A stretch of DNA of 32,467 nucleotides. Source: Alphaproteobacteria bacterium (GTDB taxonomy: Bacteria > Pseudomonadota > Alphaproteobacteria > RF32 > CAG-239). The stretch is taken from positions 100,027-132,493 of the forward strand of contig JAFYFJ010000020.1 of assembly GCA_017543835.1 (NCBI GenBank), in the 5' to 3' direction. How positions within the stretch are numbered: position 1 is the stretch's first letter; every line of letters begins with the position of its first letter. A program made the position numbers and the translations under genes. A model generated the notes under the pieces. That model was not told the origin of the DNA. It saw only the letters and a program-made list of their open reading frames with translations, and searched no databases. Positions 16,160 through 26,965 of the stretch are shown here, piece after piece.

Positions 16160-16168
16160 GTGATTTTT

Positions 16169-16203
16169 TTGCTTGCAAAACGGTGTGTTTTGCGCAATAT
16201 AAA
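16169..16203 (+). promoter_or_regulatory. Promoter of ffs with CAAAAC/GTTTTG palindrome
   Basis: Contains GCTTGCAAAAC-N5-GTTTTG: inverted hexamers CAAAAC at 16176-16181 and GTTTTG at 16187-16192. TTGCAA (16173-16178) can be the -35, with AATATA (16196-16201) at 17 bp or TATAAA (16198-16203) at 19 bp as the -10. The same palindrome with the same 5-nt spacing lies upstream of the probable 6S RNA. Confidence 0.6.
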
Positions 16204-18328: not shown

Positions 18329-18922
18329 GTGCAAGGCAACGATATCGAAAAATTGATAAAAATTATTGCAAAACTGCCGGCTTTGGGCGCGCGGTCGGCA
18401 CGTCGTATTGTTTTGCACCTGCTCAAAAAGAAGGATACGGCGCTGTTGCCGCTGATAGCCGCGCTTCAAGATGTGGCGGACAATATCAAAAAATGCCCGA
18501 TTTGCGGCAACTTTGACACCGACGAACCGTGCGCAATTTGTGCCGATGCGGCGCGTGATGCCGAGCTTGTCTGCGTGGTGCAGGATGTTGCGGATTTGTG
18601 GGCAATGGAGCGCGTCGGACTCTACAAAGGGCAATATCACGTTTTGGGCGGTATTCTTTCGGCGCTTGATGGCATTACGCCGGAAGATTTAAACATTGAA
18701 TCGCTGTTTTCACGCTTGAATCAAGGGCAAATCAAAGAAGTGATTTTGGCTCTGCCGGCAACCATCGATGGGCAAATTACAACGCACTATTTACTTTCGC
18801 GCCTTAAAGAATATCCGCTTAAGGTGACGACGTTGGCACAGGGTTTGCCGCTCGGCGCAGAGCTTGATTATATGGATGACGGAACGATACAGTTGGCTCT
18901 TTCCGCTCGCAAAGAAATATAA
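18329..18922 (+). CDS. recR: Recombination mediator protein RecR
   Basis: Acts with RecF/RecO to load RecA on SSB-coated DNA. The 197 residues begin at a GTG at 18329, 10 bp after ybaB. Order: helix-hairpin-helix (LIKIIAKLPALGARSARRIV; usual PGLG reads PALG), zinc finger CPICGNFDTDEPCAIC at about 57-72, Toprim domain from about 80 (LVCVVQDVADLWAME through EVILALPATIDGQITT), and the C-terminal Walker B-like LAQGLPLGAELDYMDDGT. Complete and normal length. Last gene of the ffs-dnaX-ybaB-recR cluster. Confidence 0.97.
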   Translation: MQGNDIEKLIKIIAKLPALGARSARRIVLHLLKKKDTALLPLIAALQDVADNIKKCPICGNFDTDEPCAICADAARDAELVCVVQDVADLWAMERVGLYKGQYHVLGGILSALDGITPEDLNIESLFSRLNQGQIKEVILALPATIDGQITTHYLLSRLKEYPLKVTTLAQGLPLGAELDYMDDGTIQLALSARKEI

Positions 18923-18925
18923 AAA

Positions 18926-19126
18926 ACGCGTATAATGGTCTATTGCTTGTTTATAAGGCGGCTTATGTACCTCTTTTGTACACTGCGCCGCCTTATAAAC
19001 GGCGCACTAGCCGCATTATCCGCGTTTTTCGTGATTCAGTGCTTGTTGCAGATTTTTCGCTTGTGTAGCTTTGTCTACGCGGCGTTCAAAAAGCACGGCG
19101 CACCAGCCGCGTTCTCCGCGTTTTTT
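18926..19126 (+). repeat. Palindromic repeat region, unit A and tandem unit B
   Basis: Fills most of the 335-bp gap between recR and tolQ. Unit A starts CGTATAATGGTC (TATAAT 18931-18936), then 14-nt arms GTTTATAAGGCGGC (18949-18962) and GCCGCCTTATAAAC (18987-19000) pair perfectly; the loop holds TTATGTACC...GTACAC, itself with inverted GTAC. A 31-nt segment at 18999-19029 is repeated at 19095-19125 with three mismatches, and unit B (from 19058) has a smaller analogous hairpin CGC-TTGT-GTAG...CTAC-GCG. A related unit C lies at 26824. An 83-codon open frame crosses the region, but I regard it as incidental. The rest of the gap holds a DnaA-box-like site at 19149 and the tolQ promoter. Confidence 0.82.
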
Positions 19127-20441: not shown

Positions 20442-20447
20442 GTGACG

Positions 20448-21419
20448 ATGAACAAATATCTGAAACAGTCAATCATTTTACACATTGCGGTATTTATCGC
20501 AATGTGGATTGATATGCCGGATTTTTGGCATCATGATATGACACTGGGGCAAAATCCGATTATTGTGGATTTATCGCAAGTGCGTATTGACGAGCTGACC
20601 AATTTGCCGACCAAGGCCGAGTTTGCCGAAGAAGACCAAAAGGCAACCGTGACCGAACATAAAGAGCAATATACCGATGCGAGCGAGACCGAGCCGGAGC
20701 CGGTCAAAGACGAACAGCCGGAAGAGCCGATAGACGACAGCAAAGAAGATTATGTGGCACCGCCGGAGCCGGAAAAGAAACCGGAGCCGGATAAAAAGCC
20801 GGAGCCGAAACCGACACCGAAAAAGCCGCCGGTCCCGACCGCTAAGCCGAAACCGAAGCCGGAACCGAAGCCGGAGCCGAAAAAGGCCGAGCAAAAGCCG
20901 CAAGATACCAAGAAAAAAGAAGAAGAGCGCAAAGTTCGCAGCAACGCTCTCAAGAGTTTGCTCAACGAAATCGATAACGATAAAAATATCGATTTGGGGC
21001 CGCAAAATCAAAAAGCGACAATTAAGCAAGGCACGCAAGTCAACAATATGGGTATTGAAGGCGGCAATTCGCAGGGCTCGTATTTCAGCGATTTGACGAT
21101 TTCCGAAACCGACGCCATCGCCAGCTTGTTGCGTCAAAACTGGAACTTGGACCCGGGCGCAATGGGTATTGACGGAATGCGGGTTGAGATTCGCGTCAGT
21201 ATGAAGCGCGACGGCTCAATCAATGAAATCGAATTTGTGGATAAGCATCGCTACAACACCGACCCGAATTATCGCTCGGTGGCAGAAAGCGCACGCCGCG
21301 CCATTATTATGACCGAAAACGCGTTCAAACAGGTATTCGGCCAAAAATATGCTGACAAATATGATGTGTGGCAAACGCTTCGCTTGTATTTTGACCCGCT
21401 CGATAAGGGCGTTCACTGA
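20448..21419 (+). CDS. tolA: TolA-like energy-transducing protein
   Basis: A TonB/TolA-type protein of 323 residues linking the TolQR motor to the outer membrane. The ATG at 20448 has AGGTGA 3 nt upstream and is preferred to the GTG at 20442. An N-terminal membrane helix (about 7-25, SIILHIAVFIAMWI) is followed by a periplasmic region, a Pro/Lys/Glu-rich segment at about 80-150 made of repeats such as KPEPDKKPEPKP, then a basic stretch and a C-terminal globular domain from about 215 (ISETDAIASLLRQNWNLDPGA onward, with the family pattern on VRVSMKRDGSI-like residues). TolB and Pal do not follow; the next gene is convergent 2 bp away with no obvious terminator between. Confidence 0.92.
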   Translation: MNKYLKQSIILHIAVFIAMWIDMPDFWHHDMTLGQNPIIVDLSQVRIDELTNLPTKAEFAEEDQKATVTEHKEQYTDASETEPEPVKDEQPEEPIDDSKEDYVAPPEPEKKPEPDKKPEPKPTPKKPPVPTAKPKPKPEPKPEPKKAEQKPQDTKKKEEERKVRSNALKSLLNEIDNDKNIDLGPQNQKATIKQGTQVNNMGIEGGNSQGSYFSDLTISETDAIASLLRQNWNLDPGAMGIDGMRVEIRVSMKRDGSINEIEFVDKHRYNTDPNYRSVAESARRAIIMTENAFKQVFGQKYADKYDVWQTLRLYFDPLDKGVH

Positions 21420-21421
21420 TT

Positions 21422-22825
21422 TTACTCGTCGGCGGAAAACGTATCTTTACGCTGATATAAATCCGGCAAAATTTGCTGATAATCATTTTGCAGAATTTTC
21501 GGATTAAGAGAAAATCTCGGCGGATATTGCGTATAAATACCTTCCGGCTCGATATTGATATATTGCGGCCGGTGCTTATTGATAAAATCATTAACATCGT
21601 AATCCGGCTGCGAATGAAACAATGTTCCGTCAACGCTGTGTAATCTGTTGAACATAACATAATAAGATAATTGCGGGGCATAGACATTTATGGCCGTAAA
21701 ATAAACATTGAAAATCTGTGCGTTTTCATCTTGATTAACCAACGCCATTTTTTTGAGCCCTTCCTTACTGTAATCGGCAAAGAAAGAAACTAAATTGGTA
21801 ACGGCAGAAAATAAAAAGAAAGCGTAAAGAAAAGACTTTTTCTCTGACTTCATAAAAGACATAAGAAGCGGAGTCGCAACAATAGCCGTCAACATTGAAA
21901 GCTCAATCAGATAATGCGGTTGTGTCGGCGGATAATATATATGTTGAATAAAAGAACATACAAAAAGTAAAAAGAAGGTGTTATAGCAAAACGACGGTTG
22001 CTTTCTCCAAGTATATATTCCGCAAACAAGAGCAATAAGATAATACGGCAGCCAAAACCAAATAGCATAAGATTGCTGGCGATAAAACTTTGTGAACACA
22101 AAATTGTTAAGGAGCCAATTTGTTTCGATATATCGCGACCATGCGCCGTTGAAATACAACCACGCGGCAAACGCACCGAGCAGGACCATGCAAATCAATG
22201 CGGTAATTGCGGCATCGGCATAACAACGTTTGTTTTTGCGGCACAAAACGATAAGCGGCAAACCCAACGGTAATATGCCGAAAACAATGGTCTGAATAAA
22301 GAAAAATGCCACACAAAAACAAATGCCGCACCAAATCAGCGATTTTGTTTTGCGGACTTCGGCATAATCAAGAAAACAATAAAGACCGAGCACATAAAAA
22401 AAACGGGCAAATGATTCGGGCTTAAAAAATGAAAAACTGTAAAGGATAGGGAAAAAAATCGAAGAGCAGAGCAAAAAATACCAAAAAGCATTACTGCCGC
22501 CGAGAAAACGTTTGAAGATGAGATAAAAAATGTAAAAAGTCAAAAGCGAACAGACGGCCGCCACCGCTTTGGCAACATAAAAGGCCAACATGGCATTATG
22601 CGGCAATATTTTCATGAGCGGCGCAAACGTATACCACAGCAACGGATGATGATGCTCAAAAAAATCGCGATACGGCATATTGCCGAGACTAACGAGCCAA
22701 CTCATACGCAAATGCTCAAATGTATCCATATAGGCATAACCGTCGTAGCGGAAAAAATAGCCCAAAATAATCAGGTTGAGCAAGAGAATAATACACAGAC
22801 ATTTGTTCTTGAAAAACTCGGTCAT
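21422..22825 (-). CDS. Polytopic membrane protein, putative GT-C glycosyltransferase (copy 3)
   Basis: A 467-residue integral membrane protein. The start at 22825 (MTEFFKNKC) has a strong GGAGG 6 nt upstream. About 10 hydrophobic segments span most of the length, with a final soluble region of about 80 residues. The first extracytoplasmic loop contains YMDTFEHLRMSWLVSLGNMP then YRDFFEHHHPLLWY, which is shared with the two genes upstream. Acidic residues in this loop and the multi-helix layout resemble GT-C enzymes (GT39/ArnT-like) that use polyprenyl-phosphate sugars to modify lipids or proteins; that activity is inference. It is the most diverged of three tandem paralogues and starts 42 bp after copy 2. 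GC is lower than in the housekeeping neighbours. Confidence 0.78.
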   Translation of the reverse strand: MTEFFKNKCLCIILLLNLIILGYFFRYDGYAYMDTFEHLRMSWLVSLGNMPYRDFFEHHHPLLWYTFAPLMKILPHNAMLAFYVAKAVAAVCSLLTFYIFYLIFKRFLGGSNAFWYFLLCSSIFFPILYSFSFFKPESFARFFYVLGLYCFLDYAEVRKTKSLIWCGICFCVAFFFIQTIVFGILPLGLPLIVLCRKNKRCYADAAITALICMVLLGAFAAWLYFNGAWSRYIETNWLLNNFVFTKFYRQQSYAIWFWLPYYLIALVCGIYTWRKQPSFCYNTFFLLFVCSFIQHIYYPPTQPHYLIELSMLTAIVATPLLMSFMKSEKKSFLYAFFLFSAVTNLVSFFADYSKEGLKKMALVNQDENAQIFNVYFTAINVYAPQLSYYVMFNRLHSVDGTLFHSQPDYDVNDFINKHRPQYINIEPEGIYTQYPPRFSLNPKILQNDYQQILPDLYQRKDTFSADE

Positions 22826-22867
22826 ATTATATCCTCCGATAAAACGAAATACGGTGCGCAAAAAATC

Positions 22868-24349
22868 TTATTCATCGTTTGTATCCTCAAGCGGTAATGT
22901 ATTTTTGCGCATATAAATATCCTCTTCGATTTCTTCATAATTCTCTTTTATAAAGTCACCGACAAAGTGGCGCCGTATAATTTCTTTTTGTTCCGGTGTC
23001 GGTTTGAGAACGCGGCAGATTGTGTAATAATCTCCGGTAAAAAGCGGTGGGCGAAATATAATTTGCGCATTATGCCGCCGGTAAATTTCTTCCAAATCAT
23101 AATCGGAAACATACTGAAAAGACATATCGTCAATGCTTTCCAGATTAGGATACAGCCAATAATACGCCGGCTTTTTTTCAAAAACCTGTGACAGAACGGT
23201 TTCGCCGCCGGTTTGTGCAATATATTTTTGAGTCGACTTAAATAGATTTTCGTTGATGAATATAAAGTTTGTGCCGGTATGCAATAACCAAACAAAAACA
23301 AACAGCGCAAAGATTTGTTTATATTTCAGGCACAACTTTGTGATAAACGGCGCCGCAATCATAGCGGCAAAAATGGCTAACCAAGTCAGATAATATATAA
23401 AGTTTGTTACCAAAAATGTTCTGAGAATAAACTCGACAAGCAGGCAAAAAGCCAAGGTCAGAGTATAAATGTTGAATTTTTGCCGATAAGTCAAAAAACA
23501 TATCGCCACAACCGCCACCATCAACATATCGCCGACGGCCAAAAATTTGGTGACCGAAAGGCGCGTCTGCATCCATGCCGAAGTGTAAATCGAATTAAGA
23601 AGCCAGTTTGTTTCATAATAGCGCGTGAGCATATCGAATTTCCACAAAATTGCAACGCAAGCGGCGAGAATAGCGAGCGGCAAAACGGCGGCCTTGGCAA
23701 AGTCCCGCCACTTTTGCGGATTTTGATACAAAAAATAACACACCGGCACGGCAAGCGGCGCCACATAAAACAAAGTTGTTTGCAAAAACAGAAAAGCCGC
23801 CGTCCACAACAGTGCGCAAATTTGCAAATCACGAAACTTTTGATAACGAAAATAGCAAAACAAATAATAAAGCCCGATGAAAAAACAACAGCGCTGATAA
23901 ATATCCGGCTTGATGTGATACAACCCCGCCACCGATACATTGCTTATGCCCCAAAAATAAAACACGAGGCAAAACAGGGCGCAGAGTGTGCCGCCGATAA
24001 ATCGCTTTTCCGTTTTGTAAATAAACCAGCCGCCGAGAAGTGATACGCCCAAACTGATGAAACGGCCGATTCTCAGAGCCGTAATCGTATCGTGCGGCAT
24101 AATTGAAACAATCGGCGCCAACACATACCACAACAGCGGATGATGATGCTCAAAAAAATCGCGATACGGTGCATCGCCCAAACTGATAAAATATGCGGCG
24201 CGCAGGTGCTCGACATCATCAAACAAAATATGCCCCGAAAACAGCAGAACATAAACCGTTTGCCCCAAATTTATCAAAAGCAGCAACCACAATGCGCAGA
24301 AAAGAAATTTTTTGTAAGATAAATTACGGAGCATTTTTACACCTTTCAT
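22868..24349 (-). CDS. Polytopic membrane protein, putative GT-C glycosyltransferase (copy 2)
   Basis: A 493-residue paralogue of the flanking genes. Hydrophobic segments begin at about 13-33, and the loop after them carries DDVEHLRAAYFISLGDAP and YRDFFEHHHPLLWY. Mid-protein features include QRCCFFIGLYYLF and LPLAILAACVAILWKF. The soluble end finishes IYMRKNTLPLEDTNDE, resembling the ends of copies 1 and 3 (IYQRKDT). The ATG overlaps the stop of copy 1 (ATGA), with GAGGGAA upstream; Met6 with AAAGGTG is an alternative. It is very similar to copy 1 at DNA level in the middle region. Substrate is unknown. Confidence 0.78.
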   Translation of the reverse strand: MKGVKMLRNLSYKKFLFCALWLLLLINLGQTVYVLLFSGHILFDDVEHLRAAYFISLGDAPYRDFFEHHHPLLWYVLAPIVSIMPHDTITALRIGRFISLGVSLLGGWFIYKTEKRFIGGTLCALFCLVFYFWGISNVSVAGLYHIKPDIYQRCCFFIGLYYLFCYFRYQKFRDLQICALLWTAAFLFLQTTLFYVAPLAVPVCYFLYQNPQKWRDFAKAAVLPLAILAACVAILWKFDMLTRYYETNWLLNSIYTSAWMQTRLSVTKFLAVGDMLMVAVVAICFLTYRQKFNIYTLTLAFCLLVEFILRTFLVTNFIYYLTWLAIFAAMIAAPFITKLCLKYKQIFALFVFVWLLHTGTNFIFINENLFKSTQKYIAQTGGETVLSQVFEKKPAYYWLYPNLESIDDMSFQYVSDYDLEEIYRRHNAQIIFRPPLFTGDYYTICRVLKPTPEQKEIIRRHFVGDFIKENYEEIEEDIYMRKNTLPLEDTNDE

Positions 24350-25830
24350 TGCGTTCCCTCGGTTGCGGGTAATGTATCTTTGCGCTGATAAATATTGTAT
24401 TGGATTTCTTCATAATTTTTATTCAGAAAATCATCGATACATTGCTTGTCTAAAATATGGCGCAATAAAATCTTTTCCTTTTCCGGCGTAAACTTCAAAA
24501 TTTTGCGAATTGCCTCATAATCCTCGTTCGGCTTAGGCGGATAGAGAATGTATTGCGGATTATTCTGCTTGTAGATTTTTTCCAAACTGTAATCGTTGAC
24601 ATATTCGAACGACACATCATCAATACTTTCCGGCAACGGATACATCCAATAATAAGACGGGCGCTTTTCAAAAAACTGTGAGAAAATCGTTTCGCCGTGC
24701 GTGTAGGGAATATATTTTTGAGCGACCACAAACTCTCTCTGATTTAAGTAAAGCATATTGCCGTAAGTGTGCAACAACCACCCCGCCGCAAACAAAGCCG
24801 CAACATTTTTATATTTTAAGCTTGCTTTGGCCAAGAAAGGTGCAGACACCATCGAAGTATAAATGATTAACCAGGTGTAATAATGCCGGAAAGGTGTGAC
24901 AAGCAAAAAGCGGGATAGAAATTCGCAGACCAGCATCGAGATTAATGCGAGGTAGAAAATATTGAATTTCTTGCTGTAAATCAAATAGGCCAACGAACAA
25001 GATGTGATGAGCAAAATGTCCGATAAATGATGCAATATTTCGCGCGTCGGATGGTTATATTCAAACCATATCGATAGGTATATTCTGTTTAAAAGCCAGT
25101 TTGTTTCAAAATAGCGCGCAAGCAAATCGAGCTTCCACAAAATTGCGACGCATACGGCGAGAATAGTGAGCGGTAAAACGGCGGCTTTGGCAAAGTCTGC
25201 CCACTTCTGCGGATTTTTATACAAGAAATAACACACCGGCACGGCAAGCGGCGCCACAAAAAATACGGTTGTTTGCAAAAACAAAAAAGCCAATGTCCAT
25301 AACAGCGCGCAAATTTGCAAATCACGAAACTTTTGGTAACGAAAATAGCAAAACAAATAATAAAGCCCGATGAAAAAACAACAGCGTTGATAAATATCCG
25401 GCTTAATATAACACAGTCCGGCGGAAGATATGGAGTTCAACCCCCAAAAATAAAACACGAGACAGAACAGGGCGCAGAGCGTGCCGCCGATAAATTTCTT
25501 TTCTGTTTTATAAATAAAATAACCACCGATGAACGATACAGCCAAACTGATGAAACGGCCGATACGCACCGCCGTAATCGTATCGTGCGGCAAAACGGAA
25601 ACAACCGGCGCCAACACATACCACAGTAGCGGATGGTGATGCTCGAAAAAATCGCGATACGGCACATCGCCCAAACTGACAAAGTAAGAAGCGCGCAAAT
25701 GTTCGATGTCATCAAATATGATATTTCCCGAAAACAGCAAAACATAAATTGTCTGGCCCAAACTCAGAATAAGCAACAGCCATAAAATATAAAACAAAAC
25801 TCTTGCGTATGTTAATTTGCTGTGCGTCAT
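24346..25830 (-). CDS. Polytopic membrane protein, putative GT-C glycosyltransferase (copy 1)
   Basis: First gene of the three-gene operon: 494 residues from the ATG at 25830 (MTHSKLTYARV), preceded by AAGGGA; the frame to 25848 would start inside a terminator hairpin. The architecture equals that of copy 2: N-terminal membrane helix, loop with DDIEHLRASYFVSLGDVP and YRDFFEHHHPLLWY, about ten membrane segments, and a hydrophilic end with ILKFTPEKEKILLRHIL and IYQRKDTLPATEGTQ. No separate promoter is evident: the rubrerythrin terminator hairpin ends within about 20 nt of the start, so read-through or a promoter inside the rubrerythrin gene may serve the operon. Members of the family are often placed with envelope-polysaccharide genes; no such genes are adjacent here. 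Confidence 0.78.
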   Translation of the reverse strand: MTHSKLTYARVLFYILWLLLILSLGQTIYVLLFSGNIIFDDIEHLRASYFVSLGDVPYRDFFEHHHPLLWYVLAPVVSVLPHDTITAVRIGRFISLAVSFIGGYFIYKTEKKFIGGTLCALFCLVFYFWGLNSISSAGLCYIKPDIYQRCCFFIGLYYLFCYFRYQKFRDLQICALLWTLAFLFLQTTVFFVAPLAVPVCYFLYKNPQKWADFAKAAVLPLTILAVCVAILWKLDLLARYFETNWLLNRIYLSIWFEYNHPTREILHHLSDILLITSCSLAYLIYSKKFNIFYLALISMLVCEFLSRFLLVTPFRHYYTWLIIYTSMVSAPFLAKASLKYKNVAALFAAGWLLHTYGNMLYLNQREFVVAQKYIPYTHGETIFSQFFEKRPSYYWMYPLPESIDDVSFEYVNDYSLEKIYKQNNPQYILYPPKPNEDYEAIRKILKFTPEKEKILLRHILDKQCIDDFLNKNYEEIQYNIYQRKDTLPATEGTQ

Positions 25831-25846
25831 TGTATCCCTTAAAAAC

Positions 25847-25878
25847 AAAAAAAGACCAGATTTAATCTAGTCTTTTTT
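25847..25878 (-). terminator. Intrinsic terminator after rubrerythrin
   Basis: AAAAAAGAC.AGA (25848-25860) pairs with TCT.GTCTTTTTT (25866-25878) with one C/A mismatch and a 5-nt loop; on the minus strand it ends in a T-run. It lies 22 nt after the rubrerythrin stop and reaches to within about 17 nt of the next start codon on the same strand. Confidence 0.8.
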
Positions 25879-26511: not shown

Positions 26512-26608
26512 GCGCTTTAAATTTTGCTCTTAATAAGTTTTGAACACGCGCAAATCGGCGCAAACCCGCGGAAATCCTAACTTTTTAGCCGTTTGAATTC
26601 TTTTTTGC

Positions 26609-26637
26609 TTGCAAAACTCAGAGTTTTGATGTATATT
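26609..26637 (+). promoter_or_regulatory. Promoter of the probable 6S RNA with CAAAAC/GTTTTG palindrome
   Basis: TTGCAA (26609-26614), 17-bp spacer, TATATT (26632-26637). Overlapping it are CAAAAC (26612-26617) and GTTTTG (26623-26628), the same inverted pair with the same 5-nt gap as at ffs. The region 26512-26600 before it shows nothing else I can name. Confidence 0.6.
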
Positions 26638-26647
26638 TAAATTAGAG

Positions 26648-26813
26648 ATAAGGAAGACTGTCTGATACGTGTCAACCGCATGTCACTCGAGCCAACATTA
26701 CCATTTCGGGAGCTGTCTCTGTCCGGATCGTGGTCCGGTTATATGGCACCCACCTTAACGCAAGCGGTTCGGTCTGAATGAAGAAAGTATGCACGGTCAG
26801 ACGGTCCCTTTTT
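26648..26813 (+). ncRNA. ssrS: Probable 6S RNA
   Basis: An RNA of about 165 nt that would bind RNA polymerase holoenzyme and mimic an open promoter. Evidence: its own promoter; a long closing helix in which GACTGTCTGA (26656-26665) pairs with TCAGACGGTC (26797-26806) with one G-U pair, extended inward by CGTG/CACG; a rod-like interior including the hairpin CCGGA...TCCGG; the segment CGAGCCAACATT on the 5' side, comparable to TGAGCCGATATT of the E. coli RNA, and TGGCACCCACCTT on the 3' side, which I recall from alphaproteobacterial 6S RNAs; and a T-run after the closing helix. No protein-coding frame is convincing here. Strand follows from promoter and T-run. Confidence 0.7.
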
Positions 26814-26823
26814 ATTTTAAAAT

Positions 26824-26965
26824 TCGTATAATGGTCAGATACTTGTGAGCGGGTTGGCTTATGTACCTTTTTGTACACCGCGCCACCCCGCTTACTGCGT
26901 CTCTGCCTCATTCTCCGAATTTTAAGGAGTCTGTGCTTGTAATTTTTTCGTTCGTGTTCTTCTTA
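26824..26965 (+). repeat. Palindromic repeat unit C
   Basis: Directly after the probable 6S RNA. It begins CGTATAATGGTC (TATAAT 26827-26832) as unit A does, with the same 18-nt distance to the hairpin. Arms GTGAGCGGGTTGGC (26845-26858) and GCCACCCCGCTTAC (26882-26895) pair with 12 Watson-Crick pairs, one G-U and one mismatch. The loop TTATGTACC...GTACACCGC is nearly the same as in unit A, while the stem differs. Downstream similarity continues through CATTCTCCG and GTGCTTGT...TTTTTCG to about 26965. Confidence 0.82.

What the first reader, a model, noticed from the sequence alone, without database searches (positions are those of the whole stretch)
18926..19029. Hairpin repeat with conserved loop but compensatory stem changes (unit A versus unit C)
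Units at 18926 and 26824 share CGTATAATGGTC, an 18-nt distance from the start of TATAAT to the hairpin and nearly the same loop (TTATGTACC...TTTTGTACAC). Their 14-nt stems differ at 8 positions, yet pairing is kept: T-A to A-T, A-T to G-C, T-A to C-G, A-T to G-C twice, and C-G to T-A are six double compensatory changes, plus one T-A to G-U and one mismatch. Such covariation between two copies in one genome means the structure is selected or the element is copied with self-complementary turnover. The fixed TATAAT suggests that each unit starts a small RNA. The result could be a family of structured RNAs or a palindromic mobile element unlike the REP or RPE types I know.
Basis: partly seen in the sequence, partly recalled or inferred. 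Interest (0 to 1): 0.85.

Follow-up and report, generated by a model that had tools for sequence, protein, structure and literature searches.

The report
Self-copying hairpins at gene ends
Many genes of this gut bacterium and its relatives end in a long DNA palindrome that sits where a transcription stop signal normally lies; its two halves change together so cleanly that they seem to be copied from each other in DNA, not repaired step by step as an RNA would be.

Summary
Units A and C differ at 8 of 14 stem positions, with six double compensatory changes. They are two of about 14 copies in this genome; same-genus genomes hold 1 to 26. The whole ~110-nt unit is one long interrupted hairpin.

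TATAAT is in only 24 of 103 copies, pairs with the other arm, and has no promoter-like partner.

Two things were missed. (1) Copies sit directly behind stop codons, in the sense direction, mostly of housekeeping genes (rpoA, recR, rpsA, rpsD, nusG, pgk...) or behind 6S RNA. Behind rpoA, 12 of 21 genomes have it, eight have an ordinary intrinsic terminator in that slot, and one has a remnant. (2) Pairing is nearly strand-symmetric (G-U 2.0%, A-C 1.2%; 6S control 162 G-U to 4 A-C), and near-identical copies already differ mostly by paired changes. Arms are shared between loci of a genome and replaced at the same locus in relatives.

Best explanation: a mobile or copied family of long terminator palindromes whose arms are rewritten together in DNA (template switching plus copying between loci). 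Termination and mechanism are inferred. Related in kind to REP/Bru-RS repeats; the DNA-level arm turnover makes it unusual.

The parts
18920..19030 (+). Unit A: full ~110-nt palindromic element behind recR; its outer A-tract contains the recR stop codon TAA (18920-18922)
   Evidence: (118.5 bits)
18921..18930 (+). left outer arm AAAAAACGCG, pairs with 19021-19029
   Evidence: sequence; fold
18961..18988 (+). conserved apex GCTTATGTAC-loop-GTACACTGCGC (TGTAC/GTACA stem, TTA/CTGC internal loop)
18987..19000 (+). right main arm GCCGCCTTATAAAC
19021..19029 (+). right outer arm and T-tract CGCGTTTTT
18329..18922 (+). recR, the gene that unit A follows
   Evidence: RecR domains, Toprim_4
26652..26811 (+). 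6S RNA (SsrS), the RNA gene that unit C follows
   Evidence: RF00013, E 7.2e-7
26816..26926 (+). Unit C: full palindromic element at the 3' end of 6S RNA, where other species have an ordinary intrinsic terminator
   Evidence: (112.9 bits)

Best explanation
A genus-wide family of long (107-114 nt) palindromic elements that occupy the transcription-terminator slot directly behind stop codons (and behind 6S RNA), in fixed sense orientation. Shown: the A-tract/T-tract palindrome, the position and orientation, and that some species carry an ordinary intrinsic terminator in the same slot. Inferred: the unit ends transcription and protects the 3' end. Shown: the two arms change together, with little preference for G-U over A-C mispairs, and arms are shared between loci of a genome and replaced at the same locus in related species. 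Inferred: this comes from a DNA-level process, namely template switching (hairpin-templated synthesis) that rewrites one arm from the other around the conserved apex, plus copying of units or arms between loci. The tandem half-units (spacer, apex, right arm) behind many copies could supply alternative right arms. Who moves the units is unknown.
For: Position: 103 distinct copies from same-genus genomes (one from another family); of 97 with a called upstream ORF, 93 have it on the same strand, and the other four are two 6S sites and two ORF-calling misses whose stop codons lie at offset 4 in sense. 85 of 103 start within -16..+13 nt of the stop codon's end. Downstream genes are unbiased (46 opposite, 43 same). 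Slot swapping: at rpoA 12 of 21 genomes have the element, 8 an ordinary terminator and 1 a remnant; at recR 9 of 25; at 6S 3 of 19, with ordinary terminators in G008, G002, G007 and G012. T-tract of at least 4 in 87 of 103. DNA-level turnover: pair cells WC 3761, G-U 82, A-C 50; same procedure on 6S RNA of the genus 162 G-U, 4 A-C; elements 14-25 G-U, 9-16 A-C; antisense folds as well as sense. Copies differing at 1-4 pairs: 87 double Watson-Crick changes against 76 one-sided, the one-sided ones with 18 G-U and 33 A-C. Arms shared between loci of a genome, e.g. TTCGCCGACTGTC at nusG, ppiB, rplA and a porin gene in G008. Between G000 and G021 at 6S the outer arms are identical while the whole inner hairpin is different. 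54 of 103 loci have further right-arm copies downstream. Template switching is an established cause of multi-base compensatory change in hairpins (PMC8794818).
Against: Termination was not measured, and the simple terminator scan does not call either unit because it allows no internal loops. RNA folding gives slightly more G-U on the sense strand (4.4% against 3.3%; ordinary terminators 6.3% against 2.4%), so some RNA-level selection is likely. Strict orientation of a nearly symmetric palindrome points to a strand-specific role of the apex that this model does not explain. No transposase was linked to the family. Double changes between copies could also come from copying whole units between loci without any template switching.
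Confidence: 0.6

Rival explanations
1. A structured RNA family (3'-UTR element or processed small RNA) whose stems are kept by ordinary compensatory mutation under selection for RNA structure; the apex binds a protein or RNase.
For: Sense orientation without true exceptions; conserved internal loops and apex; slight sense-strand G-U excess; 28 of 40 pairs covary.
Against: G-U only 2.0% of cells and hardly commoner than A-C, against 162:4 in 6S RNA of the same genomes; close copies show at least as many double as single changes, and their one-sided states favour A-C over G-U; antisense folds as stably as sense.
Confidence: 0.2
2. A non-autonomous transposon (MITE-like) that inserts into terminators or stop codons, with orientation fixed by the insertion mechanism, and no function for the host.
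For: Copy number 1-26 per genome, presence/absence at orthologous sites, arms shared between loci. In Gammaproteobacteria the same apex lies inside a ~280-bp element with terminal inverted repeats TAGGGCCTGTTAACAC.
Against: No target duplication can be told apart from the palindrome; no autonomous partner found; Y1 transposases absent in G000 and in copy-rich relatives; the same genes (rpoA, recR) carry it in many species with different arms, which looks like a persistent slot.
Confidence: 0.3
3. An ordinary intrinsic terminator family whose arms happen to be long; turnover is ordinary terminator evolution.
For: Ordinary rpoA terminators in this genus also have perfect but unrelated stems between species; A-tract/T-tract and position match.
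Against: Length of ~110 nt, three stacked helices with conserved internal loops and a conserved apex, shared arms between loci, and half-unit arrays are not features of ordinary terminators.
Confidence: 0.12

Closest known systems
Bru-RS1/Bru-RS2 palindromic repeats of Brucella (103-106 bp; cited in PMC10800456, PMC3163539)
   Same: Length, palindromic, extragenic, tens of copies. A Brucella tritici repeat with about 30 copies shares the apex motif (GGTGCT[TC]ATGTAC..GTACACTGCGCTCC), and about half of 15 copies read start 5-9 nt behind a sense stop codon.
   Different: I had no Bru-RS reference sequence, so identity of that repeat with Bru-RS is not proven. Arms in Brucella are much alike between copies; no half-unit arrays were looked for there.
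REP/BIME/REPIN elements
   Same: Extragenic palindromes near the 3' ends of genes; in E. coli some REPs lie within 15 nt of the stop codon (PMC12306157).
   Different: About 110 nt instead of 20-40; no linked Y1 (RAYT) transposase in most genomes; sense orientation only; arms freely variable.
Rho-independent transcription terminators
   Same: A-tract, stem, T-tract, position behind the last gene; swapped with ordinary terminators at rpoA and 6S RNA.
   Different: Three stacked helices with conserved internal loops and apex, copied between loci, tandem half-units.
Template-switch mutations that create and maintain hairpins (PMC8794818) and quasipalindrome correction in E. coli (PMC7202029)
   Same: Explains multi-base paired changes without G-U intermediates.
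   Different: Those studies concern single genes or reporters; here a whole dispersed family shows the signature.
ERIC and Rickettsia palindromic elements (own knowledge)
   Same: Dispersed long imperfect palindromes of about 100-150 bp.
   Different: Different sequence; RPEs lie inside reading frames, these lie behind stop codons.

Membership tests
REP / REPIN (RAYT-linked) | short 20-40 bp palindrome, GTAG- or CGTC-tagged superfamilies (PMC3733652 abstract) | tested here: not met
   103 copies are 107-114 nt; a tag was not looked for
REP / REPIN (RAYT-linked) | a RAYT (Y1) transposase in the genome | tested here: not met
   PF01797: none in G000, G001, G002, G003, G008, G012, which carry 16-26 copies
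Rho-independent terminator | stem followed by T-tract at the 3' end of a transcription unit | tested here: met
   T-run of at least 4 in 87 of 103, 85 of 103 at the stop codon; replaces ordinary terminators
Rho-independent terminator | terminates transcription | not testable with these tools
   no transcript data
Independent small RNA gene | own conserved promoter (TATAAT with -35) | tested here: not met
   TATAAT in 24 of 103 copies; no promoter-like hit at either TATAAT
Selected RNA structure | G-U tolerated, A-C avoided in stems | tested here: not met
   G-U 82 to A-C 50 against 162 to 4 in 6S RNA; slight sense excess of G-U remains
Rfam families | match to a covariance model | tested here: not met
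   nothing at gathering score; only chance-level hits at relaxed E
MITE | terminal inverted repeats with target duplication and a related transposase | tested here: inconclusive
   palindrome ends TAAAA...TTTTA hide any TA duplication; only Y1 transposases were searched
Bru-RS1/2 | sequence of the named Brucella repeat | tested here: inconclusive
   a Brucella tritici repeat shares apex and placement, but no Bru-RS reference was available
Rickettsia palindromic element | located inside protein-coding frames | tested here: not met
   copies start at the stop codon of an intact gene

The most novel reading that the evidence does not exclude
The apex GCTTATGTAC-loop-GTACACYGCGC is the recognition hairpin of an unknown, horizontally spread enzyme system (single-strand recombinase or hairpin-primed copying) that installs and rewrites long terminators behind genes in unrelated bacteria, with the half-unit arrays as a store of alternative arms.
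Probability: 0.15. Interest if true: 0.85.

Novelty: new variant of a known kind. Interest (0 to 1): 0.6.

Why it matters
Covariation is commonly taken as proof of selected RNA structure. This family shows massive covariation with almost no G-U preference, next to a 6S RNA control from the same genomes, so it is a natural test case for separating DNA-level palindrome copying from RNA selection. It also suggests that the terminators of core genes such as rpoA and recR are taken over and rewritten by a spreading repeat. It gives a simple check (G-U against A-C counts) for other claimed RNA families.

Tried and rejected
Promoter and small-RNA start at TATAAT: rejected. RAYT-driven REP: rejected. 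Known Rfam family: none. Phage origin: exact apex motif absent from viral contigs; one weak type-2 match (L224) has no full palindrome and was not pursued. 'Widespread across bacteria': rejected as an overstatement; 0 of 397 other genomes sampled from the phylum carry the exact motif, although the genome-contig scan found it in scattered phyla. Literature search for the apex string found only primer-like chance hits.

Full report
Check of the observation. Units A and C are as described: 14-nt stems that differ at eight positions, six of them double compensatory changes, one G-U and one mismatch, and an 18-nt distance from TATAAT to the stem. Each unit is one interrupted hairpin of about 110 nt: an outer stem with an A-tract on the left and a T-tract on the right, a middle stem that includes the TATAATGG stretch, the variable 14-bp stem, and an apex TGTAC-loop-GTACA closed off by a TTA/CYGC internal loop. 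Free energies lie 7.7 and 6.6 standard deviations below shuffles.

Family. A covariance model of eight copies from this genome finds about 14 clear full copies in the 1.3-Mb draft and 1 to 26 in each of 21 same-genus genomes, plus four in one genome of another family of the order. In the eight, 28 of 40 pairs carry double changes, far above shuffles and slid controls. Named relatives that carry the exact apex are mostly rumen and gut Alphaproteobacteria MAGs.

Position. I collected 103 distinct copies with flanks. Of 97 with a called upstream ORF, 93 have it on the same strand as the element. The four exceptions are not real ones: two follow 6S RNA on the same strand, and two have a sense stop codon at offset 4 that the first ORF caller missed. 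85 of 103 start within -16 to +13 nt of the stop codon's end, and usually the stop codon itself (75 TAA, 20 TAG) is part of the outer A-tract. Downstream genes show no orientation bias (46 against 43). Judging from their sequences, the genes are mostly core ones: rpoA, recR, rpsA, rpsD, nusG, rplA, ppiB, kdsB, fabG, pgk, dnaK, eno, tuf and others (names other than recR are my reading of the sequences, not a family search).

What the slot is. Behind rpoA, 12 of 21 genomes have the element, eight have an ordinary short intrinsic terminator at the same spot, and one (G001) has a remnant. Behind 6S RNA, G000, G021 and G039 have the element where G008, G002, G007 and G012 have ordinary terminators. 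Behind recR it is present in 9 of 25, one of them degraded. The element and ordinary terminators thus replace each other, which is the main reason to think that it terminates transcription. This is inference; no transcript data were available.

DNA or RNA. In an RNA under selection, G-U pairs are tolerated and A-C mismatches are not. In 4,051 pair cells of the family I count 3,761 Watson-Crick, 82 G-U and 50 A-C. With one procedure for both (MAFFT plus RNAalifold), 6S RNA of the same genus gives 561/162/4, and three samples of 19 elements give 643-656/14-25/9-16. Among pairs of copies that differ at only 1-4 base pairs there are 87 double Watson-Crick changes and 76 one-sided changes, and the mispairs in the one-sided ones are 18 G-U and 33 A-C. 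These comparisons share copies and are not independent events. The antisense strand folds slightly better than the sense strand. A single-sequence folding count shows a small sense excess of G-U (4.4% against 3.3%), smaller than in twelve ordinary terminators (6.3% against 2.4%), so weak RNA-level selection is not excluded. I conclude that complementarity is produced mainly in DNA.

How arms move. Within a genome, arms are shared between loci: TTCGCCGACTGTC at nusG, ppiB, rplA and a porin gene in G008; GTAAGTCCTTTTGC at rpoC and rpoA in G020. At one orthologous locus different species have different arms. At 6S, G000 and G021 share the outer arms letter for letter while the inner hairpin is of another type, a swap that is symmetric about the apex. 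Behind many units lie tandem half-units: a short spacer (GCCGTGCCGGTTG in several species), the apex and a right arm, without the left arm; 54 of 103 loci have at least one further right-arm copy within 500 nt. G008 and G002 carry both arm types in the array behind rpoA but use different ones in the first hairpin. Template switching at quasipalindromes, known in bacteria and shown to maintain hairpins (PMC8794818, PMC7202029), would produce such paired rewriting. Copying of whole units between loci must be added; its agent is unknown.

The TATAAT. It occurs in 24 of 103 copies and varies together with its partner strand; no sigma-70-like hexamer pair is found at either unit. It is an arm sequence, not a promoter.

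Beyond the genus. The exact apex pattern hits scattered genomes of other groups, where it also tops palindromes of about 100 nt with unrelated arms, often right behind a sense stop codon, and a Brucella tritici repeat of about 30 copies with the same placement in about half of 15 copies read. In Chromatiales-like Gammaproteobacteria it is part of a ~280-bp element with terminal inverted repeats and no fixed orientation. It is rare: none of 397 other genomes sampled across the phylum has it. Common descent or convergence of the apex is open.

Verdict. The independent small-RNA interpretation is not supported. The element belongs to the broad kind of extragenic palindromic repeats, is placed and built like a terminator, and is unusual for its DNA-type covariation, arm sharing and half-unit arrays.

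Noticed in passing
window 21422-25848 (-): Three tandem paralogues of about 480-500 aa with weak PMT_2 (mannosyltransferase-like) matches; stretches of 300 bp are 86% identical between two of them.
   Followed up: partly
window 16165-16192 and 26601-26628: A shared 28-nt sequence (TTTTTTGCTTGCAAAAC...GTTTTG, 86%) lies just upstream of the SRP RNA and the 6S RNA, probably a common promoter/upstream element of the two RNA genes.
   Followed up: no
L384 (G012), directly behind rpoA: A short ordinary-looking terminator whose loop contains TTATGTAC-TTTGT-GTGCA, like the element's apex without outer arms: a possible intermediate form.
   Followed up: no
L386 (G010), behind rpoA: Ordinary terminator stem AAAAGCCTTTTCTC resembles the inner arm AAGCCTTTTCTC of elements behind rpoA in G039, G002 and G016, as if arms and native terminators exchange sequence.
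   Followed up: no
L170, L128, L120 and others (Gammaproteobacteria): A ~280-bp dispersed element with terminal inverted repeats TAGGGCCTGTTAACACTA that contains two long hairpins, one with the same apex motif.
   Followed up: partly
window 20759-20901: Proline/lysine-rich (PEPKPEP-like) repeat in the ORF at 20442-21419, without Pfam match; the ORF lies downstream of an ExbB/TolQ-like gene.
   Followed up: no
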